From the NCBI GenBank assembly GCA_029931535.1, contig JAQPZY010001684.1, forward strand, positions 1,376,501 through 1,440,500: a stretch of DNA of 64,000 nt. Reading direction: 5' to 3'. A model generated the notes under the pieces. It had not been told where the DNA came from. It saw only the letters and a list, made by a program, of their open reading frames with translations, and did no database searches. Positions within the stretch are counted from its first letter, which is position 1, and every line of letters begins with the position of its first letter. Source of the DNA: Margaritifera margaritifera. Its lineage: Eukaryota > Mollusca > Bivalvia > Unionida > Margaritiferidae. Shown here one piece after another: positions 4,515 to 64,000 of this stretch. Position numbers and translations under genes: made by a program.

Positions 4515-4701
4515 CTTGATCTGTTTTGGTTGCAGGTTTCCAGTTTTCAGCACTAATTATTGGTAAACATACTTGACCCTTCTCATCTATATTAGGATGG
4601 TATATCTTTGTCTTAAATGTGATCTTAGGAGGTTTAAATGGATACTCTGCTGGGAAATCTATCTGGATCTTAAACGCTCCTTTGTTATAGGGTGGGTTTT
4701 C
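4515..4701 (-). CDS. UBE2L3: UBE2L3-like E2 ubiquitin-conjugating enzyme, exon 3 (catalytic)
   Basis: E2 enzymes take ubiquitin from an E1 as a thioester on a cysteine and pass it to E3-bound substrates; UBE2L3 (UbcH7) works with HECT and RBR E3s. The exon encodes 62 residues plus one base. Motifs in order are [37 protein letters not shown] (the E2 HPN region) and [20 protein letters not shown]. The Cys of VCLP falls at residue 86 when counted on the known UBE2L3 architecture and is the active-site cysteine. The acceptor is TTCCTTCCAG before 4701 and the donor is GTGAGT after 4515, giving entry phase 0 and exit phase 1. The expected next exon (C-terminal helices) was not found, and the region downstream is a DIRS element. 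Confidence 0.95.
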
Positions 4702-12536: not shown

Positions 12537-13358
12537 CTATGATCTGAACAGGAACTCTGGTATGGACTGGTGCAGAGACAACTCTTTGAGGACTATCTTG
12601 CCTCTCCTTGACAGACTGTCTGCCAGAATATTTTTCTTGCCCAGAATATGGCAAACGCAGAGGGTAATCCCTACCAATACTGCCCACCAAAGGAGGTTCC
12701 AAACATCCATGCAAAGAGAAGGAGCATGTGTGCCTCCCCGTTTCCTGAGGTATGCTACTACCGATGTGCTGTCGGAGGAAACCATCACACAACAACTCCT
12801 TATTTGGTTACGCATCCATGTAAAGCTAAGAACACTGCCCTTATTTCCAAACTGTTCATGTAATGGGTAGCTTCTTCCCAGGATAACAAGCCATAAAGAA
12901 CTACCCCTTCTGGCTCTAAGTCAGCACCCCAACCCGAATTTGCTTTGTTGGTATACAGTCAAGAGTGTGGTTCAGGTGAGTGAAGTGGGACTGCGGATAG
13001 AAACCAGTCCCAAATGGCCCACCAACACATGTGGTAATGAAAATCTGGTCCTTAAAATCCTAGCTGACAGGGAATCCCTCTGCAATCTCCAGTTCACCGA
13101 AAGAAGAAACTGGAGAGGGTGCAAGTACAGTCTTTCTAGGGGAACCAGGTCTGTTGCAGAGTTCAAAGTCCCCTGGAGGGATAGGTAAAGGCAAGCCCAC
13201 AAGGTCTTGGCTTGAAGAGCCACAAAAGAACCAGGATTCTGTCCATCCTGTCCAGTGGAACATGAACTCACCCTAAATTGGTCAGTAAGTTTATCCCCAC
13301 ATAAACAAAATCCTGACAAGGGAATAGCTGTGATTTCTCTAGGTTTGGAATAAATCAT
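12537..13358 (-). pseudogene. DIRS copy B connection and RNase H region
   Basis: The piece 13358-12972 contains LQGTLNSATDLVPLERLYLH, matching the lG.LnaatdlVPlgRlh.RPLQ connection. The piece 12815-12537 has SSDSTSVVAYLRKRGGTHAP, then CVCHILGKKNILADSLSRRG, i.e. the RNase H TDN.T.VAYI.KqGGT and RHIPG..N.lADsLSR signatures. Sequence on both sides is frameshifted. The downstream frame 12795-12418 overlaps in another phase. Confidence 0.8.
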
Positions 13359-13740
13359 AGCTGGCTCACCATGGACCTACAGCGGCACAGATCTTGCAAG
13401 AGGGACTCTTTAAGACTCTTGTGCAATAACCAGCTGTTGAAATACTGGATGATGCAGATCCCCACGGTCTTCGGGTGAGTGGCAACTATTCCCATCACCC
13501 TGGTAAAAGCCCTGGGAACATAGGTTAGGCCAAATGGCAGGGCTTGAAACTTGAAACCCTCCCGATCCAAGCAAAACTGGAGGTATTTCCTGTAAGGAAG
13601 ACAAATTGGGATGTGAAGATATGCATCCTGAAGGTAGCTGGAGACTGCCAAGTTGCTGTGTGTTATAGTATTCCTGACTGAAGCGGTAGTCTCCATCTTG
13701 AATAGTTCCTCCTGAAGAAACGTGTTTAAGTTGGAAAGAT
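13355..13740 (-). pseudogene. DIRS copy B reverse transcriptase core
   Basis: The frame 13696-13355 reads METTASVRNTITHSNLAV, then YLQDAYLHIPICLPYRKYLQ (D.kDAYfHIPI...hrkyLrF), FKFQALPFGLTYVPRAFTRV (palm) and TVGICIIQYFNSWLLHKS. The catalytic box expected as YFDDWLLH reads YFNSWLLH (codons 85-88, 13444-13433), so both catalytic aspartates are replaced. The frame stops at 13355 and the thumb continues in another phase. It is enzymatically dead as written. Confidence 0.85.
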
Positions 13741-14420
13741 CAATGATAAGCCAAAAATTTCTGCCTTTTTTGGATATTAGGAAAATCTGGAAGTAGAAGG
13801 CCAGAGACTGGACATTGACAGTGAGGCAACTCTGATCTGATGGAAGAGCTCTCCTCAGAACTTATACAGCTAGATCTCTGCTCCCCCCTTTCAGGGTGGC
13901 TTGATCTGCTCATTGCCTTCACCTTTTCAGGGTGGCTTGATCCGCTCATTGCTTTCACTGGATTAAGAGCTTTGAGAGGGTCCTTCTCTTCCCTCACAGG
14001 TGGCGGTGGTGGTGGTGGTAACATCTAACTCTCAACCCTATTACTTCCTCCCTTAGTATGGATCATGGATCGAACCCTCACCAGCACTAACTGAGTCAGA
14101 GCAACCATCAGTGATCCTTGGGCCTCATAATTCTCTGAAGAGAAAGATCCCATACCCTTCCGAGATTGAGGAGTGCCCTTATCTGTAGAAAAGACAGATC
14201 CCATACCCTCTTGGAATCAAGGAATCTTCTTCTGAGCCCCTAAAGGCCAAGAGAAGGATCCCATACCCTCCTGGGATCTAAGAGTGCTTTTCTCTAATGA
14301 AAAGGTCTTCTTCTTCTGAGCCCTTAAGGACATAGAGAAGGATCCCATGCTCTTCTGAGATCAAGGAGTCTTCTTCCGAGTTCCAAGGGACTCAGAGAAA
14401 GATCCCACACACTCCTGGGT
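13740..14420 (-). pseudogene. DIRS copy B ORF1/RT junction with degenerate internal repeats
   Basis: Between 14140 and 14410 a GATCCCATACCCT(C/T)-type module recurs at intervals of about 60-70 bp, with 'tcttcttctgagccc' between modules. This is a degenerate tandem repeat within the likely ORF1. At 14024-13740 the open frame starts with a proline run and ends PDFPNIQKRQKFLAYH, which leads into the RT frame. No reliable start codon is visible. Confidence 0.45.
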
Positions 14421-19531: not shown

Positions 19532-19627
19532 TGGTACAAGCAATCCCTGCCATAGCAATATGTTTGAGTCATCCACTTGAATATTTTTAAGTATATTGTT
19601 CTCTGATTTCCTGATGTCACTCAGTTC
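19532..19627 (-). CDS. UBE2L3: UBE2L3-like E2 ubiquitin-conjugating enzyme, exon 2
   Basis: The exon encodes exactly 32 codons, phase 0 on both sides: ELSDIRKSENNILKNIQVDD then SNILLWQGLLVP. It aligns with residues 10-41 of UBE2L3 (EL..IRK...N..NIQVD..N.L.WQGL.VP), the N-terminal helix and first strands of the E2 fold. The acceptor is TTTCTTTTGCAG and the donor GTAAGT. The phases match exon 3 at 4701, 14.8 kb downstream. Residues after IRKS (ENNILKN) differ from the usual GMKNFRN type, so this may be a diverged paralogue. Exon 1, about nine codons in the family, was not located upstream. Confidence 0.93.
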
Positions 19628-19639
19628 CTGCAAAAGAAA

Positions 19640-21125
19640 TTGCAAGTCTGTTATTTTCTGCAATACACAAAGGTATTTCGACTTTTGCCAACGTACATCT
19701 GACAGATTTTTGTGAAACTTTCGAATACTATAACTATTTATGGATATAACATTCCTTAATTACTTTAATTACCAGGCAGTGTTTCTCTTAAAAGTTGGGT
19801 CCATGGTGGTCACAAATTTTGGGGCAAAGAAACTGCTTAAAACAGACATTTTATTGAACCTTTGAGTCAAAAAATATAAAAACAAAAGAAATACTCATGT
19901 ATCAAAAATATTAAAATTCTTGTTACAGGTAGTTTAATTCAGTAAAATTGCTGTACGACTTTGTTATTATTGCAAAAGATGGTAACCCTGAAAAAATCAG
20001 GTGATAGATATTGAGGTACATGTTCTTTCTTTCCACTTTTACAGGTTGAAATACGAAATCAACTTGTTTACTTTTACTACCAATCAGCCTAGAAACCTCC
20101 ACAGAGTAATATTTGCTCATGATTGGGCTACAAAATTCATGAAATTTAACCCATTTATTTTTCAAGCGGATGAGCTGGTACATATAGTTTTTGGAAAACA
20201 AATTTCTGGCCCCCAAATACATGTAGCTTGAAGAATATACCCTTGTGCTGATTTGTAGAAAAAAAGAGCCGACTAATTATATCAATGAGATTACTTGGAA
20301 ATGAAAATTATCTCGAGACAAATAAGAAAAAATATACTGGCTGAAAGGACCCCCCCCCACCACTATGATTAAATGTTCGGTCCCTTACCCGAACTTCATG
20401 TGTAAATCTCAAAGATTAAAACGTAATTGCAGACATAAATAATCATTCAATTCACACAAAAGTTAATCATAGCACAAAATAAGATGTTTAAACTGTTTTA
20501 CATTGCACATTAAACAGAAAAAGGGACAAAATAGTTGATACATATAGTGTACTTAGAATATGAAAGCATCCAGTGGCCTGAATAGGGGGTGGGGTGGGGG
20601 TGGCAGTAGGAAAAAGGCAGTCAACTTCATTTTCTAAGACTATCTGGAAGAAATAACATGTAATAGGGTGACTACTTCACTCTAATCGCACCCTAGCATG
20701 GACCCTGTAAAAGTCTTCTACTTTAAAAACCATAACACTGTAGCCATCTACTTATAAAACACAAGTTTTTTTTTTAATACTTTGTTGCATTGACTGAGCC
20801 TTGTACTTCTGACTTTGAGTCAGCTACATCTTAAGACAATGAAGACTGGCTTTGTATTATATGTATGCTCTATCAATATTCAATAGAAACTTTAAAAAAT
20901 TCAGTTGTCGCAGTTATATTTATAAAAAATAGTAGTTTTTTGGGGTGTAAAATTAATTTTAAGGATGTAATACCTATTTGTTGTTATTGCATAGCTGTAC
21001 TTTTCTGGGGGGAAAATACCCTGACCGAGTGTTGAAAATTCGTCCTATCAATTAGTGAGAACAAGAAAGTTCCAGAACACCAGACTGTATAGTGCGCACA
21101 CTCTGACAGGCAACGTAGGTTCATT
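19640..21125. other. Upstream intron/flank, no supported feature
   Basis: This should contain the first intron of the E2 gene and perhaps exon 1, but the exon is too short to recognise safely. Overlapping frames on both strands at 19923-20231 look like chance. A C-run is at 20348-20356 and a G-rich stretch at 20586-20606. Confidence 0.4.
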
Positions 21126-21508: not shown

Positions 21509-21768
21509 TTAGCTCATGGATTTGAACAAATGTCCATGTATATGTCTGCCACCTGCACCAGCACTAAGCCAGCAGTTGATAGCTGTGTCTGGGTTGAAGT
21601 CCTCAAGTTTGGATCCATTTGCAGAAATGTTCATTAGCATTTGTAAACTCTTTTGGTTTAAGGAATTCCTTAAAGAAGTCTTGATTAAGTTCATTGAACT
21701 AAATCCTCGTTCACACTCAGCAGTGGATGGGCTTATAACAAATACGATTTCTAATAGTTTGCATAATT
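21509..21768 (-). pseudogene. hAT transposase C-terminal dimerisation region
   Basis: The frame reads VISPSTAECERGFSSMNLIK, then TSLRNSLNQKSLQMLMNISA and NGSKLEDFNPDTAINCWLSA. This is the conserved end of hAT transposases (SP.S.A..ERgFS.m..iKt..Rn.l....l..Lm.i..ng....fd...ai..W). It is followed downstream by the element's left end. The frame is intact over about 80 codons, so this part is younger or less decayed than the surrounding DIRS copy. Confidence 0.85.
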
Positions 21769-21823
21769 GACTGAGACTAGGTGGAGAATATTTACTAAGA
21801 GTGTTCCAAGAATTCTCTGTCTC

Positions 21824-27362: not shown

Positions 27363-27653
27363 TTAAGATTTCAAAAATTTTAACCCGTTTTCTTCTGCCC
27401 ATTTCTGAATTCTATTTAAGCTTATCTGTAGTTGACATTCAATAGTATGCATACTCTTTGGTCTATAGCAGATCAAAAAGTCATCAATATACAATGAAAA
27501 GACAGTTCTCAGATTAAGATATTTCACTATGCTGTCAATTTTGACATTGAATAGGGTGACTGACAACATGCTGCCCTGAAGTACACCCATCTCCTGAGGA
27601 TAGCTTTCCAGAAGGGTGCAACCTACCTTGACTGTAAAATTTATATCTTTCAA
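27363..27653 (-). pseudogene. Non-LTR reverse transcriptase core fragment
   Basis: The frame reads YPQEMGVLQGSMLSVTLFNV (RT motif G.pQGSvLSvtLF), then VFSLYIDDFLICYRPKSMHT with the catalytic YIDD intact (codons 55-58, 27491-27480), then LQISLNRIQKWAEENGLKFL. The upstream fingers (28069-27660) are broken into other frames. RT would prime on nicked target DNA and copy element RNA. It is only 96 codons, so not functional. Confidence 0.85.
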
Positions 27654-28598
27654 AGAATTGGAAATTAAGTTAGGTGGGCAGCCCCTGAGGCCTAGGTTGA
27701 ATAAGCTTTCTCCAAGTCCAAAAAGATTTCAACTGTACGTTCTTTCTTTATGAAAGCTTCTCTAATAAATGCTTCAAGTCTGACAGGATGGTCAATTGTG
27801 ATTCTCTGGCATCTGAATCCACACTAAATGTTTCACAGTAGTTCGTTGGATTCAAGATAACAGAGAAGTCTATAATTTAATTGGTTTTGCAAATACAGTT
27901 TATTAATGATATGGGATATCTGGAAGGGTCTGTTTGGTTCTTTCCATGTTTGGGTACTGGTATCACAATTGCTTCTCTACAAGACTACAGGAAGTCACCA
28001 GTTTCCCAAATTTTACTGAAAATGTTTAGCAGTTTATTTAGATCTATATCAGGTAAATGCTTCAGAAGTTAACAGTGGATATCATCTTGTCCTGCTGAAA
28101 TGTCATGGGCTCGATCAAGATAGTCTTGGAATTCTCTGAGAGTGAAAAGTTTATTGTAATCTTCTGCATTATCAGATTTGAAATTGAGAGGAACTTTTTC
28201 TTTCATGTTTTTGACACAGTGGAAGTCTTCAGAATAATTCTCTTGTGGGGAGTTTTTCAAGAAGGTTTCGGACAATGTTATTTGAGATTTCTGGTAAAGT
28301 TAGGTCCATTTCATCAGATTTTTTTAAATGTCTGATACAGCTAGTTTTATTTTTGCCAAGGATTTTTCGTACCATATTCCAATGTAACAGAAAAGCAAGA
28401 CCTCAACATAGAAACATAGGTACTCCATGTTTTCCTCTTGCTCTAATGGTACGAGGATCTTTAGCTCGGTATATGTGGTATTTATTCAGAATTTCAGTTG
28501 TTGGGTTGGCATTTAAATGTTTAAGAACCTTTATCCATTTATTGATGGTGTCTTTGCATGCATCATCAATAAAAAACAATGGAAAGTTACGATAAAAT

Positions 28599-32599: not shown

Positions 32600-35500
32600 G
32601 AAGAGAGAATCAATCTTGACTTGATTAACTTTTGATCAAATATCAGCATTTGTTTGATTGCCCATCAAATTATAATCAGTTAGACAAAACTGTGGAAAAT
32701 ACAGTAGCTCACTAAGCCTGTTGTCAAATGTAAGTGGACAAACTTTGCGTTTAATTGGCGATTAATTTGCTTCAATCAGTGAAACATAACAAATTTGGGT
32801 GTTTTAATTAATGTATCATTGAGTAAGAATTTACTGGACATTATGCTCAGTGATTTATTTCGTGATTTGGAATTATAACCAGATTTTTAAAAAATGTATA
32901 TTAAATGTATTTGTGAACTGTTAAATCACAATGGTGCAAAAAAGTATATTTTCTTTTCTGCCTCAGTCCATACATGCCATACATGACGTGTCATGCGAAA
33001 AACACAATTTTGGACTCCCATATCCCCCGACACGGTCGTGTTTAGAAAAACACGATTTTTAGCAATCTTTGCACACACAAAATTTCCTACCAAAAAAAAC
33101 CAAAACAACATTTTTTTAACACTATGATATATGCCCATAATCTGTGGTATGTATAAACAGTAAACAGTCTTGCTCAGAGCTCATGTAAAACTGTCCTCGG
33201 GGCAGTTTATACAGTTGTTTTAGAGGTAATTAAAAGGTAAGGCGGTGAGAGATAAACAGACACCTTTCAGAGATTTACTGAACTGGCTCACAATAGCTAG
33301 GGTGATGTGTCGTGTCAAATCCTTTAGGCACTGCTGCAGGAGAGCCCATTAGGCTAATTTGCATAGGTAAAGTACACTAAGTGGAACAACCCAATTTGTC
33401 TGAAGTTAAGTACATCAAACAGATGCGTGTTGAAGAACAAATGTTATTACACATCACTGACTGCATTGAATGAGAATGTTGAAGACATCTTTATTAAAGT
33501 TTGTGATCAGTGGCAAAGTTTCTTTGAAGTCGGAGTTTTACTCCACATATAAAATTCAAAACATGATTATTTCGGTAGGACCATTCAATCTCTAATACAA
33601 TGTTGCACCTAGGATCCCAAGGTCAGGGGACACTGTCCCTCATCTTCATTGTAAATTGTAGTACATAATGCACTAGAAGTGTTAAAAAAATGAGATAATC
33701 TTATTTGCTTCTACAGTTTTTCCACCTTAACTTTCTCATATTTTCCTTGGACATTTACATTATTGCAATAAATGTTTTATCATGTGATCAAGTAACTCAT
33801 GAAAACATAACATGTTTGAATATCTGGTTAACCTGAAATGAACTGCACCATGGAAATTTAATAATTTAAAATTATTAAATCATTAATCAAATGACAAATT
33901 GTGTATTTGCATAAACTTGTCCCTTTTTCATTAATTCAGCCTGAGAATAAATTAAATCTTCACTGCCGTAGGTGTGACTTTACCCGGAAAATCGGCCGAC
34001 TACCACAAACCGTGAATGTTTTCATTGCCAGATTCATTGTTTTTTAAATGGATATTCATTGCCATCTTACAGGTTTTATCACTTTTAGCGACTTTGGCCA
34101 TTGCTAGTGCCAACATAGACGTGGATGCACATCCATGAAGGAAAAGTGTAGGCATATTTGTGAACACAAATGACACCTGCATTACCGTCAAACCAACTAA
34201 TGAACTACTGAAAGCAGCAAAGACTGCATGTAATCAAAACTACAATCCACTGTCCAATGGATTCTAAAGATAGTAACTTGGTGTATTTTTGTATTTAATG
34301 TCTGTCAGGTTGTGACCATGTGTGTGTTGATGTTATCTGACAATGCTACGTCTACCATTTTTTGTTTGTAAGTATATTAAATGCTTCGTAGAAAGCAGAA
34401 GGTGTTTTCCTTTATTCACATTTGAATTTCCAGTCATTTGCTATAGGCTGATTTGAAAAGATAGCTTATTCTCACTTGGATGGCGTCGCTTTTTTTTGGG
34501 GGGGGGGGTCATGCGCACTGACCCCCCTTGGGACCTCAAAACAGACTTTTTGAGTCTCAAACAACCCCAAACACTGTCTGGGAATCTGGCAAGTATGTCA
34601 GTCTCAGAAACGACCTGCCATTGATGATCATTCCTACCCTCAGACTCCAAAAAAAACAGAAAGTTAGTAACAAATCTGAGAAGAAGGAGAATACATTTCC
34701 TAAAGTTGTAAGAAATCTTAAGTATCAGTCTGCTCTACGAATAAGGAACAATCCCAGCTACAAGCTCATGACTCAAAAACAAATGACTCTTGAGATTTCA
34801 GTTCTGACTCAAGATTTTCATTTTGACTTTTGAGATTTTGGCGTCATGGGTCAAATGATTGTTCATTTTTGAAATCTACTGAGAACCCTGGGTATAGAAT
34901 CAACTGCAGACCTTCGAGACGATTCCGATCAACAAAACAGGGTATGAGTCAGCCGAAAGGCAAACAGAAGGTTTACCGGCAATTTAACGACATTGCTATT
35001 GTCCATTCGTTCAAATTCATACAGATATAACTGAAAATATGAGAGAAATATCTACTTCAGTGTAAAATATGTCGAACTTTCATCAAACATGTATAACCGT
35101 TTCTACCTTTTGAAGCCGCCTGGTCGCTGCCATCTTAGAAATATCACGTGACGTACATAGCAAGCAGTTACCGAACAAGGATGTTGTTGGTCTTGTAGAC
35201 CAAAGCCCTCCGTTTTGTCCTCAGAGCACCCCATTTCCCTTGGTCCCTGTTGTCTATTATTAAAACTATTATAAATAACTGTCATCAAAACCGTCGTAAG
35301 GGGCGGGCGATACAGACGACCGCCCCAGCCCCAAGAGCGGGGGCCGCCATTTCGCGGAGTTTGCGGTATTTTCTTGGGGGGGGGGGGCCGTTTCGTCTAG
35401 CGCAAATTTGCGACGGCCCTGTTATTGAGACTCAAGGATCTAGCTCACGAATAGCTGAAGTTACCTTAGCTAACCAAGTCCCTGGTTATACCAAAGGCAT

Positions 35501-36045: not shown

Positions 36046-36593
36046 AGGCTAATTCGGAGTAGTAGTATATAATAGGGGTATGAAAACAAACACACGTCGT
36101 TAATTCAAAAATCAATCAATCATTGTGAGCTGACCAACGTATACGGCCGAAAAGCCGCACACGTCGTAAATTGCAAAATAAGTAAGTAATTATCAGCTGT
36201 GGATGGTCTGGATGTCTCACGGTGTTGACCACTCTGTTTGATATTCGAGTCAAATGAAGCAGTTAGGAGTACCACCTAACTTCCGATGTGAACACAACAG
36301 CGTAGATTGCAGGCAGTTTATAAGGTTAGGACCTCAGAAGCCGTTCACACTAGCGACCGGGTGCAGTGGTTATGCGAAAATAATATTTTTTGTTTGTTTG
36401 GTCACACCTGTTTTCGAGAAATATCTGCTAATTAGGAGGCAGCATGTTTATGTTGACTATATTATTGTTTAAATAAAAAAATGCTAGCTGATTTATGTTG
36501 TCTAAATTATTGTTTACATAAAAATGCATGTTTTTTGTTGTTGTTGTTTTTTTGTTGTTTTTTTTTTAGAGAGAGAGATAAGGATACTTGTAT

Positions 36594-36899
36594 ATGATGG
36601 ATTGGAAAGAACACCCTGTCTATAATCTTTATGAAGCTGTGACAATGGCGACGTACGACATATCTTGCGTTATAAAATTCTTACCAAAAAATCCGAATAA
36701 TAATGGCTACATACTGATCGCAGTATCTAACATTGGCAAGTGTCAGAAAGTATTGAGCGCACACGGATTTATTTTCGAATGTCATTATGGTATCATACCT
36801 GATAATATGATCATAGACCACATTAATGGCGACAGATCTGACAATAGAATTGCCAACCTGGAAGCTTTCACAAGGCAGATTGGCAAACACAAAAAATAG
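36594..36899 (+). CDS. HNH-type homing-endonuclease-like protein
   Basis: The start is the ATG at 36594, giving 101 residues. Near residue 80 it reads MIIDHINGDRSDNRIANLEA, the signature of HNH_3/NUMOD-associated HNH nucleases (DHINgdr.DNR..NLr.). The DH and N residues of the metal-binding fold are visible and the frame is uninterrupted. The N-terminal part (WKEHPVYNLYEAVTMATYDI) has no separate DNA-binding domain I can name. Such proteins occur in phages, giant viruses and virus-like elements and nick DNA. It stands at the left edge of the virus-like block. Whether it is expressed is unknown. Confidence 0.75.
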   Translation: MMDWKEHPVYNLYEAVTMATYDISCVIKFLPKNPNNNGYILIAVSNIGKCQKVLSAHGFIFECHYGIIPDNMIIDHINGDRSDNRIANLEAFTRQIGKHKK

Positions 36900-37247
36900 T
36901 ACAAAAAATAGCATGTCGTGTGGCAGCGACAAATATAGATAAGGCTGAACAATAAGTTTTCAATTACATGTATCAAGCAGAAAATACGTTAAGCACTAGT
37001 CGTCAATCTATTTTATTCTGCTACTGATATGAAACGTGCTTCGGTTTCAGTGTCATCCGCCTGTTGCAGAAACACTACGCGTATGCCCACAGAAATTTTA
37101 TGCCGCGATGTAAGCACAGCTCCTTAGAAAAAAATTGTTTTATGCTTGGCTTTGCTAACGTTGTAAAATATCAAGCGGTATTAACTTGCCATTTTTCAAG
37201 GCAAACGTTTTGTCGCAGTCGGCAAAGGCCCGCTTGCTATTGTTTCT

Positions 37248-37523
37248 CTACTTGCTAATTTTTAATATCTCTAACAGAGTATCTTGGCTGAAGCATGATA
37301 CGCTATGACGCATCAACAAGTCGCTGTCGTAGCAAATGTTGATCATGCCATGTGTTTTAAGTAGTTGCCTCTGTTCGTCTGTAAGCAAAATCGGCGTTTT
37401 AGATAAATTGTCTGCTCCAGAAGCAGCATTTTCTGATATCACACTGAGATCCAAATTAATATATGAATCAGGATTTTCATACATCGATTTGACAGCATTA
37501 AAAATCAATTCTGGATGTTCCAT
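37248..37523 (-). CDS. Small unknown protein of the virus-like block
   Basis: The likely start is the ATG at 37523 (the open frame continues further upstream to 37643), giving about 91 residues. It opens MEHPELIFNAVKSMYENPDS and contains LLTDEQRQLLKTHGMINICY. The composition is acidic and Leu-rich, mostly helical, with no membrane segment. I do not recognise a family. It has no internal stop and lies head-to-head with the small plus-strand gene at 37589. Confidence 0.4.
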   Translation of the reverse strand: MEHPELIFNAVKSMYENPDSYINLDLSVISENAASGADNLSKTPILLTDEQRQLLKTHGMINICYDSDLLMRHSVSCFSQDTLLEILKISK

Positions 37524-37588
37524 GTAAACGTCTATAATATAAACAAATGTATATGACGTGATATATAACGTTGTTTGATCAAAATGTA

Positions 37589-37849
37589 TGATAGTGATGA
37601 AAACGAAGATGCCATTGTACGCGACTACGATGACTACAATCAAGTCGAAATGCGCACCTGTATTATAATATGAGGCCGCAAAAATATATCAGAAAATATC
37701 ACATCAGAAACAAGTTGGAGCGGTTTAATCTGTCCTACGAAGAAACAGCGCAATTCAATCGGATCTTTGACAGATTTATTACATTAGACTTGCCAAGAAG
37801 ACAGAAATTTATTAAGTTTGATTACGTATTCAATAAAGTACTGTACTAG
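37589..37849 (+). pseudogene. Possible viral late transcription factor (VLTF3-like) fragment
   Basis: A first short acidic frame (MYDSDENEDAIVRDYDDYNQ) from about 37589 stops at 37673. Overlapping it, an ATG at 37670 opens 59 codons: MRPQKYIRKYHIRNKLERFN, then LSYEETAQFNRIFDRFITLD and LPRRQKFIKFDYVFNKVLY. The pattern of helices followed by RR..F..f.yv..k.l resembles the C-terminal part of VLTF3-type factors of large DNA viruses. The resemblance is from memory and weak. The 3' end overlaps the next minus-strand gene, as in compact viral genomes. Confidence 0.35.
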
Positions 37850-38131
37850 TCATCACACGTTCATCTTCTTCTGTTGGCGTGAATTCTTTGATGATTTCTT
37901 TGACAGGCTCCAATGGAACAGCCGGCTGTGGCACTGGAGCTCCCATAATCTTAGATACCATTTTTTGTCCAGCTACTGATCATACTGCTCAAGCGGCACT
38001 TTTTGAAGCACTACTGACAAGTGGAGCAATTCGTTTGACTATGCCTGGTACTACAATAGAAATTGTTGAAAACAGCGTTGATAAAAAAAAATCTTCCCAT
38101 GATCTTTCCGCGCTTAATTCGTCTTAGCTTC
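37830..38131 (-). pseudogene. Hydrophobic/basic small virion-type protein, pseudogene
   Basis: It starts MKLRRIKRGK at 38131; a frameshift at the T-run (38087-38095 region) changes phase. The second phase reads EDFFLSTLFSTISIVVPGIV then KRIAPLVSSASKSAA, a hydrophobic or amphipathic segment, two stops (TGA), then MGAPVPQPAVPLEPVKEIIK, ending near 37830. A short basic N-terminus, an amphipathic centre and a proline-rich tail recall internal virion proteins of adenovirus-like elements (inference). It is immediately downstream of the minor-capsid-like gene. Confidence 0.4.
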
Positions 38132-38146
38132 ATTTATACAACACGG

Positions 38147-38886
38147 TTACATAGTTTTAGTTTGCGCTCGCAAATGCAGATATAATGTTACTCGCTCGTT
38201 GTTAAGATTGACGTTGTTTCCAGATTGATCTGTGATTGACATTGCGATTTCTGTATACATTATTGATGGGATAATAAATTAGCGGCGATGGCTTCATTGG
38301 CCATCAATGATCCTGGAGGCACATTAGGTTGAAGCCTACAGATAACGTGGCTATGGCCTCCTCGTGCATCAAATGATCCTTCTGCTATGGAACAATTGAT
38401 GAGTAAGCTGTTTACGTCTCTAATGTTTACGGGAAAGTCTCCATCGTAAACACCATTTTCTTGTAGAATTTGCGAACTCAAACCTAATAGGTTTCTTAAG
38501 CTGCTGTCGATTGTAAAGTCAACTCGATAGCCACCCTTTGGCGTCAATCGTGTCTTAAGCGTACACTAGTTCGGCTCCATGATTATGCTATCGCGAATAT
38601 GACCTTTTTCGCCAATCATCCTTTTTATTTCATCAACGATGTCAACAATGTTGTACGCACCTGGAATGATGGTGAGCAATGCTCCTGCATCATTAACGGA
38701 AGTAAGATATTTAAACTTGTTGTTGCTTGCTGTAACATTATGAAACGAGTTCCACATTTCTGCAGAAATTGGCGCGATCTCATAGCGAGTATCCTGCGAT
38801 AACTCTATGCGCGTGATATATCTGACAGTAAAATTACTGCTGCTTCCTTGAGCCAACATGGAATCGAAGAGAAGAGTTTGCAACAT
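38147..38886 (-). pseudogene. Candidate minor capsid (penton-like) protein pseudogene
   Basis: The frame from ATG 38886 runs to an amber codon at 38568-38566 and continues in the same phase to 38260, then a frameshift leads to a third segment ending at 38147; about 247 codons in all. Visible segments are TVRYITRIELSQDTRYEIAP, LLTIIPGAYNIVDIVDEIKR, GGYRVDFTIDSSLRNLLG, HVICRLQPNVPPGSLM and TLYLHLR near the end. Beta-rich text with a YRVDF..s..L..LLG block recalls structural proteins of virus-like elements in invertebrate genomes (memory only). One stop and one frameshift make it non-functional. It is divergent from the fibre-like gene, with overlapping start codons at 38884-38887. Confidence 0.5.
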
Positions 38887-39969
38887 GGCTGTACCAAATC
38901 ACAGTACGCATATAAGTATGTAAATTCCAAAGTGTTGTTAATAGATACCAATACAAATTTTCCTCGAGAATGCTTACTTTCAGTAGGACAAAACTTGGCA
39001 TCGGCAATTACTAGCAATGAAATGTTAGTGTCAGCGCCATATGTCTAGCCGCTAGCTGGTGGAACTATGACTGACGACATCAAAATGGATTCTAAAAAAA
39101 TTACAAAATTAGCTGCGCCAGAAACTGAAGAAAATGCGGCTACAAAATCATATGCAGATGCAAAATTTAGCGCAGATGACGACATTTTGGTTAGCGTACC
39201 AGCTACAGTAAGCTGCAGATATATTGGAATGACTGCGGATCTGCCAGTGGGTAAATCCCTGTGTTTTGTTTTTGGTTCGCCCACAAGGCGGATTTTTGTT
39301 CAAATATCATCTGAGATATCTTATAGTCCAATCATTATTTAAGTGCTGAAGGTTTTAGAATTACAATACTATAAGCTCAGTTATGTTTGTAGTTACTGAC
39401 GCTGGAATCAATGCGACCTTTGCTCAGATAAAAAATGTGGGCGTGCCAACTGAGAGTGCAGATGCGACAACTAAAATGTATGTGGATTCCAAGCGAATAA
39501 AAAATACCATAGGACACATTACATCGCTGTCGTCCAATTCTGATAATCGCAATGGATTTGTAGCCTCTGCATCATCGGAATATTCAGCAACCTTTGGAGC
39601 GCATCTGGCTTTTGCTGACCCCATATCTGCTGCGTCAAATGGCGACTGGATACAGCAGGCGTTTATAATAATTTTTGGGTAAGAATAGATTGTCCTGTGG
39701 CGGTTACTATTTCGAGCTTTCAACATAGAGGAGATCAGTTGCAAATGAATACATCAACAAGTGGCGTCTAGAAGCGTCCAATGATAGCGCTAACTGGACC
39801 ACGTTTTACACCAGTGTGGATACATTAGGATCAGCTCTGGGTACGTTTGGTATTGCAAGACCCTGGCACGACAAAATATCGCCTCTACAGATTGTATTGC
39901 ATTTCTACGATGCAAGTCAATCCCGGTCTGACTTATTTCCAGGTTTTTAAGCTAGATAATCTTATGTAA
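38885..39969 (+). pseudogene. Tail-fibre-like protein with discoidin-like head, pseudogene
   Basis: Two shaft repeats are visible: GGTMTDDIKMDSKKITKLAA then ATKSYADAK (39057-39164), and AQIKNVGVPTESADATTKMY then VDSK (39422-39493). They match the fibre repeat G.m.g.i.m...kItnl..P....dA.TK.YvDsk of phage and viral fibres. After the second comes RNGFVASASSEYSATFGAHL, then NNFWVRIDCPVAVTISSFQH, WRLEASNDSANWTTFYTS and NPGLTYFQVFKLDNLM at the end, the pattern of an F5/8 type C (discoidin-like) receptor-binding fold. One in-frame stop (39051) and at least four phase changes break the gene. Confidence 0.6.
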
Positions 39970-40020
39970 ACAACATATATAAAATGTCATAATTGGTAAG
40001 AATTGCACGGGAATTTAAAA

Positions 40021-40356
40021 TGGTGTTGCTTGAAGAAATACACAATAGCGCGGGTTTTGATAACACGAGATTTAAGACGTATTATGATGAAATTTGTGAA
40101 AACAAACAATTGTACAAAACGTTTTTGGCGGATCCAGAAGGCGTACAAATAGATGATATCATGCTTAATCTTTTTTTTCGGTAACTCACGTGAGAGCGCC
40201 ACATTTGCGGAACAAGGTAAACAAATATGACAAATTAAAAAAGTTTTGCAATGACAATCAATCTGCCAGCGCTGCTAGAAGCATAGGAGCGCTCTTAAAA
40301 AACATTATAAACAAGCTGAATAAGGATACCTTACAATTATTGTATCTAACCAGATA
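40021..40356 (+). pseudogene. Small unknown protein of the virus-like block, frameshifted
   Basis: The first phase reads MVLLEEIHNSAGFDNTRFKT then LYKTFLADPEGVQIDDIMLN and stops at 40184. A second phase from about 40190 reads VRAPHLRNKVNKYDKLKKFC, then ASAARSIGALLKNIINKLNK, and ends at 40356. It looks like a helical, Lys/Asn-rich protein of about 110 residues. Its stop is followed after 16 bp by the ATG of the next gene (40372), suggesting close packing or an original single ORF. I do not know its function. Confidence 0.4.
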
Positions 40357-40371
40357 AATAAAACGCAGAAA

Positions 40372-41993
40372 AATGAACGAAAAAGAAACAAAAGATCTAG
40401 ATGTTGACTACGCATGCATGTACAATCAAGTCTGACGAAAAACACTTAGAAACCAAGAAAGACTTCAAGATCAAGTCGACAAGGGTTTTTTTTTTTTTTT
40501 TTTTTTTTGCAAAGAACTTGGTTTGGATTATGACAACGTAGAAACGATTCTAGAAGTGATGGCATCAAAAAAGACGGTGAAAAAGATCTTCCTGATGATC
40601 CGCAGCCACAACCTCCTTATGTAAAGCAGTCAGAGCAAGAAGCAGAAAAGCCGCAGCCACAACCTGTTGTAAAGCAGCCAGTGTTACCAAAACACAATCC
40701 AATTGTTGAAAAACAAGATGATATAAAAATGAAAAAGGTAGCAGAAGCATTTTACAACATTTTTAAATATGAAAAAGATTCTTGTAATCCTAAGCCATCA
40801 AGGGAAATTTACTATGTTAAAACAGGGGATCTAGCAGGCTTAAAAAAAATATTGTTGTTTCAGAAATACTTACTAGTTACTTTAATGAACCTGAACTAAC
40901 GAAAGATCAGATGCATGAACTAACAGAAGTTCAGGTGTATGAACTTGAACAAATACCAGACAGACTAACTAAATCTTATCACTCCTTTGCTAAGCTTGTG
41001 AATCCAACTCTTTACTAGCAGCTGATGAGCAAACTTGCGGTAGAATATCCACAAGATAATTCTAATCCTGAGCACAATATAAGCAGTCACAACCTGAAGC
41101 AGAGCAATCACAACCCGAAGCAGAAAAACCGCAACCACAACCTCAACCAAGACCAGAAATTATAAAAGTAGAAGCAGAGCAACCACAATAAGATGAAATT
41201 CCAGAAGTTGTGAAAAAAGGCTACTGAAGCTTGTTATCATATACTCAGATACAGAAATTATAATGTGTATGAAGACAATGTTCTTGCTGCAGCTCTTGAA
41301 TACATTACAAAATTAACACAAGAAGACAAACTTGCTCTTGCAAGATATAGTGATAAGATTCCATTAACACTAAAAGAAAACTAAGATTCTGCTGCATCCA
41401 CTGATGATAGCATATGGAATTTACTGCTCAATAAGTATTTTGTAGACTCACCAAGTCCAGATGAAGAAAACAAAAGTCAATTTAAAGGTCGCTTGATTGA
41501 TATGACATCTCACAAAGAAAACCTTGTTACAACAGCAAAAAATATTTATGATAGAATACCAAATATTTGTAATATTTTATTTGCATTAGAACTAAGAAAC
41601 GTATTTAGTGCTACGATGAAATCATTAGATATCGCGTAACACGGCGCTATGACTCAAATTTTCTTGCTGGTGCAATTACTTATTTAAAGTCAAAACCTGA
41701 TGGTAGAATTGGAATGATAAGTGCTTATTATAATTCAGAAAGAAAGTTTACCTATTATCCTTTTTCTCATGATTCGCAAATTCCAACAGAAGAAACGAAA
41801 GCAAACTTTAAGAGATATCATACGTCCATGACAAAATTCGAAGTGAAAGCGTTGATACTGGTGATATTAAAGCAGAGGACAATGGCGGATTTATAAACAA
41901 TTTCTACTATGAGGAGACACTAAAATTGGGTACCATCTATACTTGTCTTGACAAAATCGTACAAAGTTTTCTCGCCGCCAAGCTTATTGTATA
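40372..41993 (+). pseudogene. Long Pro/Lys/Glu-rich unknown protein of the virus-like block, pseudogene
   Basis: The start ATG at 40372 opens MNEKETKDLDVDYACMYNQV, followed by a stop and a 24-bp T run (40485-40508). Later segments are EAEKPQPQPVVKQPVLPKHN (low-complexity), AEAFYNIFKYEKDSCNPKPS, IPDRLTKSYHSFAKLVNPTL, NVLAAALEYITKLTQEDKLA, SQFKGRLIDMTSHKENL, LFALELRNVFSATMKSL, DTGDIKAEDNGGFINNFYYE and CLDKIVQSFLAAKLIV at the end. Several stops and phase changes intervene. At about 540 codons it would be the largest protein of the block. The second half looks globular and conserved in style; function unknown. Confidence 0.45.
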
Positions 41994-41999
41994 ATTCTC

Positions 42000-43260
42000 C
42001 TAGCACGCGTATTGATTTTTCTAGTTCTATTGCGATATCTGCGTAAAAATAAATATGTTAAAGATGTTCCTTTGATGTCTGGTAAATAGTTTTAAAAGCG
42101 TCCTTGACAAACTTGTATGCGCTATTTAACGTCAAGATTTTTGTGTGTCATCCAGCTGACGTCCTCAATATTCCAGCCTATAGAAAACTTTACCCTTTGC
42201 GGCGTATGCTCGCTCGTATGCTGCCATTATTCGTCTCCGAACATTGTATAATACTATTCTTTCTTTTTCTCTAATTAAAATACAAATTTGACGCAATTTT
42301 GATATGGCGCCCTTGATCGTCCTACTGATCGTCCTACCATAGTTAGGTTCATGAGCAGTGTAATTGTATGTGATCTTAAAAAGTTTCAAGGGCAACACGG
42401 CGACCAGCTTACTGCTAGGATACTTTTTCGTGATACTATCTATGGCGTCAGAAATGCAATCATGTTGGTCGTGGACGCTTGTGATAATATCATATTCATT
42501 TTCAAATTTGTATATGTCATATATTTTCATGAGACATCTGTCAAACCAGTGAGCGTACTTAAATATGTTGTTTATTGTTTCTCTGTCAACGTTATCTCTG
42601 GGAGTTTGACCCCACTGCGTAAAGAAAGCAGGTCTTGTCCGTATTTTTCACGTTGATACAAGCCTATTTGCTTTTCACCCATTCAGGTAATTCAATGTAC
42701 ATTTCACCCTTTAGTGGTTTGAATTCAGCCACTTTTAAATAAAGAGCCTCTTATGAAACATTTCGTGGTAACTATAATCTTTGACTAAACTGAGTAATTA
42801 AACTGTCAAATAGTTCCTAGAAAAAAAGAAAATAAAAAACTTGTTAAAATTTGAATGATATCCGCAACTTTGGTGGTGTCGAAAAAATTGTAACGTTTCT
42901 TTTTCCTCCTGGCCAGTTAAAAGCTGAGTATATTTTTGTAATATAACTTGCAACTGAAGTTGGGTCTTAACAGATTTGATAGTTTTTTTAAAAAAATATT
43001 TCCCTCGATGATATAAATGATGCTTGCTTTAACCTGAGAAAAGAACAGGTAATAATCTTTGTTGTTGTCATCAGTAAATTTGTATGCGTTTACTTTTTGT
43101 CGTTTAATGCTTTTAATTTTCTGACCCAAATTTCTTATTGTTGCTCTCGTTTAAGTTTTCTCTTTTCTCCTCTTGTTTCTCCTTTGTTGGTCTTGTCTCT
43201 CTTTTTTGACTATTTCTTCTGGCATTTCTTCTACTTCTCGGATTTCTTCCCTCCTGGGTA
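42000..43260 (-). pseudogene. Possible polymerase-associated protein region, pseudogene
   Basis: From the right: a Glu/Lys/Arg-rich stretch (EVEEMPEEIVKKERQDQQRR, about 43230-43170), then YKFTDDNNKDYYLFFSQVKA and SIIYIIEG (43129-42917), then FKPLKGEMYIELPEWVKSK, a stop, and ACINVKNTDKTCFLYAV (about 42720-42615). Next, in another phase, DNVDRETINNIFKYAHWFDR and the frame 42530-42165 with ISRTIKGAISKLRQICILIR and RRRIMAAYERAYAAKGKVFY. The YI.LP..vk.k.a.iNvkN.D..CF.ya block resembles a domain preceding B-family polymerases in virus-like elements (memory). No polymerase motif (DxxSLYPS, YxDTDS) was seen, so this is tentative. Confidence 0.35.
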
Positions 43261-45564: not shown

Positions 45565-45632
45565 TGAGTAAACTTCTATTATGGGTACCGTTTGATATTG
45601 TCCAGAATCAATATAAACTTAGATATCTTTCT
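45565..45632 (+). repeat. Perfect 68-bp direct repeat, left copy
   Basis: It begins TGAGTAAACTTCTATTATGG and ends CTTAGATATCTTTCT. It is identical to 47211-47278 at every base. Confidence 0.95.
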
Positions 45633-45781
45633 TTATTATATACTCATTTTTTTCTCCGTTAACTTTGCATTGTCAGAATCGTGCAGTATTTCTCCATACT
45701 GCACGGCTTCATACTGCACGACACGAGTGTCTAAAAATAGTATCGCGTTTTAGGAACTACTTTTTTTATTGTAAACAAACA

Positions 45782-46110
45782 ATGTACGCAAATGAAGCAG
45801 ACACCGGAGCTTTTGCTTTATTAGATTTGTCTGTGGATGAACTAAACAAGCTGTTTGAGACTAGAGATGATAAATCTGACGATGTGGATGAATTCATGGA
45901 GTCACAAAAGAATCTTTCAACCAAGCAAGTGAGTGAACGTGATATTCACAATGTACTGCGGTGGCTTTATGACAACAAACGTGAGGCATGCAGTATTGAA
46001 AATATCATTCTGATCATTTAAACACTTATTTAGCCGATGGTTCAGACTACGAACCGTGCTCTCTAGAGTCTATAAAAATATAGCATAAAAAGGCATCTTA
46101 TGACCAAATG
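45782..46110 (+). pseudogene. Crypton/KIAA1958-like tyrosine recombinase N-terminal fragment
   Basis: The start ATG is at 45782. The frame reads ALLDLSVDELNKLFETRDDK, then ERDIHNVLRWLYDNKREACS, and stops at 46021. The next phase continues NTYLADGSDYEPCSLESIKI. The acidic Dls.deL..l.e.kd...t..... region followed by L..Yl....dGs.YEP.SL.siq is the pattern of the N-terminal region of Crypton-derived proteins (KIAA1958, QRICH1-like) and related recombinases in invertebrates, from memory. No catalytic recombinase domain follows. It lies inside the segment bounded by the 68-bp repeats. Confidence 0.5.
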
Positions 46111-46340: not shown

Positions 46341-47102
46341 AAATTGTTTGGATAAATAGTGACAGTACATATAAATATGTCATCTATAGCTGGTAATAAG
46401 AATGGCAAAAAATGTACTTAATTTTCTGCATCTTGAATTTCTTCAAAATGTACTTTCTGATCCACGGTGCGAAATTGCACTGCAATCTAGACTACGATTC
46501 CAACAGAAATCACATTCCAAAGGAGAATTTACTGCACTCCAAAACGAAATGAATTTGATATTCCCTAAAAAAAATATTTAATCCTGCATCTTCTTGAGAA
46601 TTTCACTTAAAAGAATTTCATATTTTGTCCACCTTATGATTCCAAACTATCAATGGCAGGACAGTAACACATGTGTAAGCTAGCTTGCTGTCGAGGCCAG
46701 TCCCTCTAGCTACATGTACAGCGTACGTAATAGACCCAGCTAAAAACTAAAAGAGCAGAATTTAGTTGAATCGACAGAAAAACAAAATCCCTCCATTCCC
46801 GATCAACTGGGAAAGTTGTTCCAAGGCGCAGTCATTCACAATATGACTCAAAATTTCAATTTTAAGTAGACCAAAATGAGATTTCTTTTTGAAACAAATC
46901 ACTGTGCGCGAGGTACTCTACCAAGTTCAAAGGTCACTGGGCGGTGCCATGTGCGCATGAATACTGTTACTGTGTATTGGTTTAACTTCGGTTGTGTATT
47001 TACATTAGAATATAGCAGAAATTCAGTTACTTTGTTTCTTGTAGTGTGTTCTTTTTATTATTCAGCCTTAGGTAGAAAAGCAAAATGAGTATATAATAAA
47101 AA

Positions 47103-47200
47103 GGTTACTGCATTTGTATGGGAAAATATGAACTCGTTTTTTCTGAGCTATACTGCACTCAGAAAACTCGTTCATATTTTCCCATACAAATGCAGTAACC
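47103..47200. repeat. Inverted repeat/hairpin, 38-bp arms
   Basis: The left arm (47103-47140) starts GGTTACTGCATTTGTATGGG; the right arm (47163-47200) ends with its reverse complement CCCATACAAATGCAGTAACC. About 34 of 38 positions pair across a 22-bp loop. It lies 10 bp before the right 68-bp direct repeat. MITE-like. Confidence 0.85.
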
Positions 47201-47210
47201 TATAAATACT

Positions 47211-47278
47211 TGAGTAAACTTCTATTATGGGTACCGTTTGATATTGTCCAGAATCAATATAAACTTAGATATCTTTCT
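47211..47278 (+). repeat. Perfect 68-bp direct repeat, right copy
   Basis: Identical to 45565-45632, with 1646 bp between repeat starts. Confidence 0.95.
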
Positions 47279-47559
47279 ATACTGAGGATACAAATTAATC
47301 TTGCAGCTTAACTATGCAAGTCTTAAATTCGATATATATTTGTAACACGATCATTGTGTCAAAGGGACGGAATCAAAAGGAAACACGTGTTCCATTTAAA
47401 CATTTCAAAATCGAGTGGTTCATTTAAATGATAATCCAAAAAATCGTTGTATGTTACTTTAGAATTTATAGCCTTTAACTGACCTCCGCTGATTCAAAGT
47501 TTGGGAGATCTCGAAAAACATATTGAATTTTAAATACCTGGGATACTAGTGCAATATGC

Positions 47560-56724: not shown

Positions 56725-57475
56725 CTGTAATTGATTTTAGATGTTGTACAGTCATTAATGCTGAGTGATCTGTAATTGATTTTAGATGTTGTACAGTCAT
56801 TAATGCTGAGTGATCTGTAATTGATTTTAGATGTTGTACAGTCATTAATGCTGAGTGATCTGTAATTGATTTTAGATATGATGTTGTACAGTCATTAATG
56901 CTGAGTGATCTGTAATTGATTTTAGATATGATGTTGTACAGTCATTAATGCTGAGTGATCTGTAATTGATTTTAGATATGATGTTGTACAGTCATTAATG
57001 CTGAGTGATCTGTAATTGATTTTAGATATGATGTTGTACAGTCATTAATGCTGAGTGATCTGTAATTGATTTTAGATATGATGTTGTACAGTCATTAATG
57101 CTGAGTGATCTGTAATTGATTTTAGATATGATGTTGTACAGTCATTAATGCTGAGTGATCTGTAATTGATTTTAGATGTTGTACAGTCATTAATGCTGAG
57201 TGATCTGACAGTCAATAATGCTGAGTGATCTGTAATTGATTTTAGATATGATGTTTGTACAGTGCAATTAATGCTGAGTGAATCTGTAATTGATTTTAGA
57301 TATGTGAGTGTACTGTCATTTAATGCTGAGTGAGCTGATGATGCTGATGTTGTACAGTCATTAATGCTGAGTGATCTGTAATTGATTTTAGATATGATGT
57401 TGTACAGTCATTAATGCTGAGTGATCTGTAATTGATTTTAGATATGATGTTGTACAGTCATTAATGCTGAGTGAT
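56725..57475. repeat. 50-bp minisatellite, about 14-15 units
   Basis: The unit is CTGTAATTGATTTTAGATAT followed by GATGTTGTACAGTCATTAAT and GCTGAGTGAT. The first three copies and one later copy lack five bases (45-bp form). Copies around 57200-57350 are scrambled, while the central units (56870-57130) are identical, indicating recent homogenisation. Confidence 0.97.

Positions 57476-60389: not shown

Positions 60390-64000
<3,611 letters not shown>

What the first reader, a model, noticed from the sequence alone, without database searches (positions are those of the whole stretch)
36594..43260. A dense, degraded virus-like gene block embedded in animal DNA
Seen: nine or more closely spaced intronless frames on both strands, including an HNH nuclease signature, fibre repeats, a beta-rich structural candidate, a hydrophobic virion-type protein and a long Pro/Lys-rich protein, each with few inactivating changes. 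Nothing else in the window has this density. Known: Polinton, adintovirus and related integrated DNA viruses carry such constellations. Inference: this is an endogenous copy of a little-described lineage with a fibre and an HNH gene. Integrase, ATPase and protease were not seen.
Basis: partly seen in the sequence, partly recalled or inferred. Interest (0 to 1): 0.88.

Follow-up and report, generated by a model that had tools for sequence, protein, structure and literature searches.

The report
Broken virus-like gene fragment near UBE2L3
A roughly 6.6 kb stretch of animal DNA just upstream of an ordinary cell gene looks like a decayed piece of an integrated DNA virus: one nuclease gene and one fibre repeat are well supported, but the viral family cannot be named from what is left.

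Summary
The block is partly real. Supported: a stop-free HNH_3 nuclease frame (36582-36896 +; Pfam E 1.3e-16) with its motif residues kept, and a broken fibre gene (about 39049-39947 +) whose first repeat matches 10 phage records, all 10 annotated tail fibre. The penton-like, hydrophobic, P/K-rich and VLTF3-like frames have no match above a curated cut-off; their names rest on reading and recall. Six-frame Pfam of 34-48 kb gave only HNH_3 above cut-off. The claim that nothing else in the window is as dense fails by frame counts: 11 of 88 outside windows have as many frames of 80 aa or more. The fibre and P/K-rich genes carry several breaks. The window is animal DNA: three coding exons of a UBE2L3-like gene lie on the minus strand, the presumed first at 35107-35133, so the block begins about 1.4 kb upstream of it. 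Most likely it is a dead piece of an integrated eukaryotic dsDNA virus, Polinton-like or a relative. Polinton/adintovirus hallmarks were not met or inconclusive. Animal genomes could not be searched (genome search did not answer in eight tries).

The parts
36582..36896 (+). HNH_3 endonuclease frame, no stop, motif residues kept
   Evidence: Pfam HNH_3 60.4 bits, cut-off 24.8, E 1.3e-16; PHROG HNH families, best 1.9e-16; tblastn 256 phage records at E up to 1e-5; 20 viral contigs; aligned with 8 of those 20 loci and P0001: H57 P69 H76 N78 D83 N84 R85 I86 N88 L89 invariant; PDB sequence search only noise, I-HmuI at E 0.74; Foldseek top hit I-HmuI at E 0.19 on a low-confidence model
37251..37523 (-). 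open frame of unknown function (about 91 aa)
   Evidence: sequence only; the longer frame 37251-37688 has no Pfam or PHROG match
37634..37846 (+). frame that resembles, by recall only, the C-terminal part of VLTF3 late transcription factors
   Evidence: no Pfam match at E up to 10; best PHROG E 0.1, unknown function; no viral-contig relative
37833..38123 (-). hydrophobic, virion-type candidate, broken by stops
   Evidence: sequence only; no Pfam or PHROG match; not searched in viral contigs or proteins
38150..38898 (-). beta-rich, penton-like structural candidate: one frame with one stop (38263-38898) and a C-terminal piece in another frame (38150-38278); the name is recall
   Evidence: sequence; no Pfam or PHROG match; PDB none or noise, 8 chains at E 0.56 or worse; no protein relative among 199 candidates; no viral-contig relative; model of one piece uninformative, pLDDT 37.5
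39049..39947 (+). fibre gene remains in three frames: repeat 1 (39049-39339), repeat 2 (39359-39679), possible F5/8 type C tip (39619-39947)
   Evidence: repeat 1: tblastn, 10 phage records at E up to 0.1, all 10 annotated tail fibre, best 52% over 42 residues, E 3e-5; at least one phage is present twice; PHROG head decoration 1.1e-4, tail-fibre PHROGs only 0.015 or worse; PDB top hit tail fiber gp9 at E 0.53. Repeat 2: PHROG tail 0.0049, phage tblastn best E 0.1. Repeats 1 and 2: 1 of 300 shuffles as good. Tip: F5_F8_type_C E 0.013, 16 bits, cut-off 28.2; PDB noise, E 1.1 or worse
39993..40354 (+). open frames of unknown function
   Evidence: sequence; best PHROG E 0.055, unknown function
40534..41893 (+). 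P/K-rich gene remains with repeated stretches and PQPQP linkers, several breaks
   Evidence: two 51-nt stretches 78% alike; protein pieces PK4/PK6 0, PK1/PK3 2 and PK5/PK6 2 of 300 shuffles as good, among 55 pairs tested; only sub-cut-off Pfam and PHROG matches, best E 0.0075
41923..42750 (-). broken gene in several frames; its start recalls, by memory only, the N-terminal part of Polinton/adintovirus-type polymerase
   Evidence: sequence; pieces tried have no Pfam or PHROG match, no PDB match, no protein candidate, no viral-contig relative
42920..43150 (-). open frame, weakest member of the block
   Evidence: sequence only

Best explanation
The block is a decayed piece of a dsDNA virus of eukaryotes that became fixed in an animal genome about 1.4 kb upstream of a UBE2L3-like gene. 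In life, the fibre would have bound the cell with a repeat shaft and perhaps a lectin-like tip, the penton-like and hydrophobic proteins would have belonged to the virion, and the HNH protein would have nicked or cut DNA, as a homing nuclease or in packaging. Shown: the HNH domain, fibre repeat 1, the breaks, the animal exons in the window. Inferred: that all frames belonged to one virus, the other gene names, and every function. Of the genes that could be identified by a database, only HNH is still open end to end.
For: HNH_3 and a fibre repeat about 2.2 kb apart; frame counts above shuffles; 16 of 23 hand-picked pieces score best in their assigned frame when codon usage is learned from the non-overlapping others, against 0 to 6 of 20-23 for automatic picks in six other stretches and a mean of 3.9, maximum 12, for 300 random frame choices; UBE2L3-like exons in the same window. 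HNH_3 genes and phage-like fibres, with discoidin domains in one case, are reported among Polinton-like viruses of protists (PMC12220804, passages seen).
Against: No hallmark virus gene was verified. Seven pieces have no viral-contig relative. The 23 pieces were picked by eye, so the codon test is partly circular; automatic picks in the block itself gave only 5 of 20, within the range of shuffles (mean 13%, maximum 30%); and the assigned frame scored lowest of the six fixed offsets (16 against 18 to 21 of 23), so the test shows a shared phase, not which frame codes. The clearest database matches are to phages.
Confidence: 0.6

Rival explanations
1. A special case of the best explanation: the block is a remnant of an ordinary Maverick/Polinton element of animals, with integrase, polymerase and capsid genes lost or outside.
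For: Mavericks are reported across all analysed genomes in a mollusc survey (PMC10294476, passages), and a clam genome paper has a Maverick row with counts 7091 and 6453 in two columns whose headings I did not see (PMC8905726, passages).
Against: No rve integrase, PolB, ATPase or protease domain in six-frame Pfam of 34-48 kb; no inverted repeat of 30 nt or more encloses the block in 30-50 kb. Whether the host is a mollusc was not tested.
Confidence: 0.33
2. It is a fragment of a larger eukaryotic virus that entered the genome, so the small gene set reflects a piece and not a small virus.
For: An HNH gene and the VLTF3-like reading (recall) would fit; frames lie on both strands.
Against: No giant-virus domain above cut-off; no viral-contig relative for the non-HNH pieces tried.
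Confidence: 0.15
3. HNH and fibre pieces came from a bacteriophage or bacterium, and the neighbouring frames are chance or unrelated.
For: The significant database matches are phage-type.
Against: Identities are low (52% over 42 residues for the fibre, about 38% for HNH in the 10 phage rows listed); the other frames have no PHROG better than E 0.027; the hand-picked pieces share a codon phase.
Confidence: 0.17
4. The frames are chance or host coding sequence.
For: Frame density is not unique in the window; the automatic codon test in the block is not above shuffles.
Against: HNH E 1.3e-16; the UBE2L3-like exons found lie outside; 0 of 200 shuffles reach the frame counts at 60, 80 or 100 aa.
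Confidence: 0.06

Closest known systems
Polinton-like viruses (PLVs) of protists
   Same: As a group they are reported with phage-like fibres, with discoidin domains in one case, and with HNH_3 genes in a few (PMC12220804, passages seen); the passages do not say that one virus has all of these.
   Different: Here in animal DNA, broken, and without a verified capsid, ATPase or integrase gene.
Adintoviruses / Mavericks / Polintons of animals
   Same: Animal setting, small mixed-strand gene block; penton-like, hydrophobic and polymerase-start readings are by recall only.
   Different: The defining OTU-bearing PolB, hexon and rve integrase (definition seen in passages of PMC11071296) were not found; the term HNH does not occur in that paper's main text.
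Meldvirus with tyrosine recombinase (Meld19810)
   Same: A figure legend names a virus with a tyrosine recombinase and adintovirus-type virion proteins (PMC11071296, passages); recombinase-like frames lie 2.6 kb beyond the block here (recall only).
   Different: The recombinase reading has no support in Pfam or PHROGs, and its link to the block is not shown.
Tailed phages (fibre and HNH genes)
   Same: Fibre repeat 1 and the HNH domain match phage proteins.
   Different: The other frames match no phage family with support.

Membership tests
Adintovirus / Polinton | rve integrase | tested here: not met
   no rve domain in six-frame Pfam of 34-48 kb; outside that, only the minus strand of 20-29 kb and nine single frames were scanned
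Adintovirus / Polinton | type B DNA polymerase with OTU-like N-terminus | tested here: inconclusive
   no Pfam PolB; 41923-42750 - recalls the N-terminal part by memory only, no relative found
Adintovirus / Polinton | hexon-type major capsid protein | tested here: inconclusive
   no Pfam match; whether the library holds a fitting model was not checked
Adintovirus / Polinton | penton | tested here: inconclusive
   candidate frames without relatives
Adintovirus / Polinton | packaging ATPase and adenain-type protease | tested here: inconclusive
   no Pfam match in 34-48 kb; whether the library holds fitting models was not checked
Polinton | terminal inverted repeats | tested here: inconclusive
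   (30-50 kb, 30 nt or more): none of 24 pairs encloses the block; (22 nt or more): 25 of 43 pairs were listed, none of those encloses it; 18 were not seen, and a truncated piece may have none
HNH_3 endonucleases | HNH_3 domain above the curated cut-off with conserved motif residues | tested here: met
   60.4 bits, cut-off 24.8; residues kept against nine relatives
Phage-type fibre repeat proteins | repeats similar to annotated tail fibres | tested here: met
   repeat 1: 10 of 10 records annotated tail fibre; repeat 2 only at E 0.1 or worse
Fibre with F5/8 type C (discoidin) tip | F5_F8_type_C domain | tested here: inconclusive
   16 bits, cut-off 28.2; the neighbouring pieces had no Pfam match

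The most novel reading that the evidence does not exclude
The block is a remnant of a little-described lineage found in an animal genome that combined a phage-type fibre with a lectin-like tip and its own HNH gene, and that integrated with a tyrosine recombinase, whose broken remains would be the frames at 45800-46080 +, rather than with a retrovirus-type integrase.
Probability: 0.12. Interest if true: 0.55.

Novelty: new member of a known kind. Interest (0 to 1): 0.36.

Why it matters
If the block is viral, it records a past virus in an animal lineage that carried a phage-like fibre and an HNH gene, features that the passages I read describe for viruses of protists. It would give a starting point for finding intact relatives, and for asking whether such viruses infect animals or came with their protist guests. 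As it stands it is one broken fragment and settles none of this.

Tried and rejected
Frame density as proof of a virus: rejected, other stretches are as dense by most counts. Exons of the one host gene recognised: rejected, its exons lie outside. Model of one penton-like piece: pLDDT 37.5, not searched further. HNH model from 10 sequences: mean pLDDT 57.9, top PDB match I-HmuI at E 0.19, no match at E 0.001 or better. Rfam and tRNA in the window: none. Boundaries: the 71-nt direct repeat at 45565-45635 and 47211-47281 frames another stretch; of the listed repeats only low-complexity T-rich ones (36529-36567 and 43132-43153, 77 to 86% over 22 nt) lie at both ends of the block, and I give them no weight. 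Internal repeats: of 55 piece pairs, six passed the print limit (6 of 300 shuffles or fewer); two of these (PK5 with a 39993-40354 frame, PK6 with fibre repeat 2) I take for chance, about what so many pairs would give. Papers: seven searches; by titles and abstract starts alone none reports this block, and one search listed nothing. Five papers were opened for passages only (PMC11071296; PMC12220804; PMC10294476; PMC8905726; PMC10120064); none was read whole. The library lacks most subscription papers.
Full report
What was checked. I listed the frames, compared their density with shuffles and with the rest of the window, and ran pieces against Pfam and PHROGs; chosen pieces also went against solved structures, viral contigs, proteins and phage records.

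HNH. The frame 36582-36896 + carries Pfam HNH_3 at 60.4 bits, E 1.3e-16, and PHROG HNH families, best 1.9e-16. It has no stop. Aligned with 8 of the 20 viral-contig loci and one protein (one of 5 candidates, E 1.5e-3), its motif residues are invariant. tblastn finds 256 phage records at E up to 1e-5; the ten listed have 36 to 38% identity. A PDB sequence search gave noise, with I-HmuI at E 0.74. A model from ten sequences is of low confidence (57.9), with I-HmuI as top but weak match (E 0.19).

Fibre. The piece 39049-39339 + matches 10 phage records at E up to 0.1, all 10 annotated tail fibre, best 52% over 42 residues and E 3e-5; Synechococcus phage S-B28 appears twice. It matches a head-decoration PHROG at 1.1e-4 and tail-fibre PHROGs at 0.015 or worse, and in PDB a tail fibre at E 0.53. 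The second piece, 39359-39679 +, has a tail PHROG at 0.0049 and phage tblastn matches only at E 0.1 or worse: 53 records at E up to 1, 41 of them Pectobacterium phages that were not listed; of the 10 listed, 9 are annotated fibre, spike or head decoration and one has no annotation. The two repeats resemble each other (1 of 300 shuffles as good). A tip of F5/8 type C kind is hinted at by a sub-cut-off Pfam match (16 bits, cut-off 28.2); the neighbouring pieces had none and PDB gave noise. The pieces lie in three frames.

The other frames. The penton-like, hydrophobic, VLTF3-like, P/K-rich and minus-strand pieces have no Pfam match above cut-off and no PHROG better than E 0.027; P/K-rich pieces had Pfam matches down to E 0.0075, all below cut-off. 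Six-frame Pfam of 34-48 kb gave HNH_3 and one match at E 0.12. PDB: none or noise. Viral contigs: none for seven pieces. Proteins: none for two. The hydrophobic and P/K-rich pieces were not searched in contigs or proteins. My names for these frames are recall and stay guesses. The P/K-rich pieces hold repeated stretches, which makes a former gene likely; one search tested 55 pairs, so a few good scores are expected by chance.

Density and coding signal. The block has 38 frames of 60 aa or more (16.9 expected), 19 of 80 or more (4.7) and 10 of 100 or more (1.3); 0 of 200 shuffles reach any of these, 6 of 200 reach its longest frame. But of 88 outside windows 11, 21, 14 and 39 reach it for frames of 80 aa or more, 100 aa or more, summed length and longest frame; only for 60 aa or more is it highest. 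The densest outside window starts at 21001. The minus strand of 20-29 kb holds reverse transcriptase at about 27.4-27.7 kb (E 2.5e-8) and a sub-cut-off hAT match; most frames at 22.7-25.7 kb had no Pfam match and look DIRS-like only by recall. When codon usage is learned from the other hand-picked pieces, 16 of 23 choose their assigned frame. Automatic picks give 5 of 20 in the block, 0 to 6 of 20-23 in six other stretches, and shuffles average 13%, maximum 30%. Random frame choices average 3.9 of 23, maximum 12 in 300 trials, but the five other fixed offsets of the same pieces score 18 to 21, more than the assigned 16. So the pieces share a phase; the test does not say which frame codes, and picking by eye biases it. 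For that reason I set the confidence at 0.6, not the 0.62 of my draft, and raised two rivals by 0.01 to 0.02 while lowering the Maverick one by 0.02.

Setting. On the minus strand lie UBE2L3-like coding exons: about 4516-4701 (E 1.7e-36), 19532-19627 (E 1.7e-6), and a presumed first exon at 35107-35133 followed by GT, one of 8 pattern matches and the only one that resembles the start of the known protein, by recall. Splice signals flank exons two and three. The block begins about 1.4 kb upstream of that first exon. Reverse transcriptase: 61362-62123 - (E 8.4e-29); 1035-1607 - and 13358-13861 - only below cut-off.

Reading. An HNH gene and a phage-type fibre repeat about 2.2 kb apart, among broken frames in animal DNA, are best explained by a fixed piece of a eukaryotic dsDNA virus. 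Protist Polinton-like viruses as a group are reported with both kinds of gene (PMC12220804, passages). Adintoviruses are defined by an OTU-bearing PolB, a hexon and an rve integrase (PMC11071296, passages); none was found here, so I do not file it there. The same paper's legend names a virus with a tyrosine recombinase and adintovirus-type virion proteins, so a recombinase beside such genes would not be unheard of; I lowered the interest of the novel case from 0.6 to 0.55 for this. Animal genomes could not be searched: the genome search did not answer in eight tries. The question of relatives stays open.

Noticed in passing
35107-35133, 19532-19627, 4516-4701 (-): Three coding exons of a UBE2L3-like ubiquitin-conjugating enzyme gene; the first is too short for a database match and rests on a pattern. 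The block lies just upstream.
   Followed up: yes
45800-46080 (+): Broken frames that recall a Crypton-type tyrosine recombinase by memory; Pfam and PHROGs give no support for the frame 45623-46018.
   Followed up: partly
45565-45635 and 47211-47281: A 71-nt direct repeat, 99% identical, around about 1.6 kb that includes the recombinase-like frames.
   Followed up: no
47102-47201: A 39-nt inverted repeat, 95% complementary, 22 nt between the arms.
   Followed up: no
1035-1607, 13358-13861 and 22.7-25.7 kb (-): Frames that look like DIRS-type retroelements by recall; RVT_1 below cut-off for the first two, no Pfam support for the third.
   Followed up: partly
61362-62123 and about 27366-27668 (-): Reverse transcriptase RVT_1, E 8.4e-29 and 2.5e-8; LINE-type by recall.
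   Followed up: partly
21512-21823 (-): hAT dimerisation region, E 0.0013, 18.9 bits, just below the cut-off of 21.4.
   Followed up: no
56740-57474: Tandem array of a unit of about 50 nt, about 15 copies in two adjoining rows.
   Followed up: no
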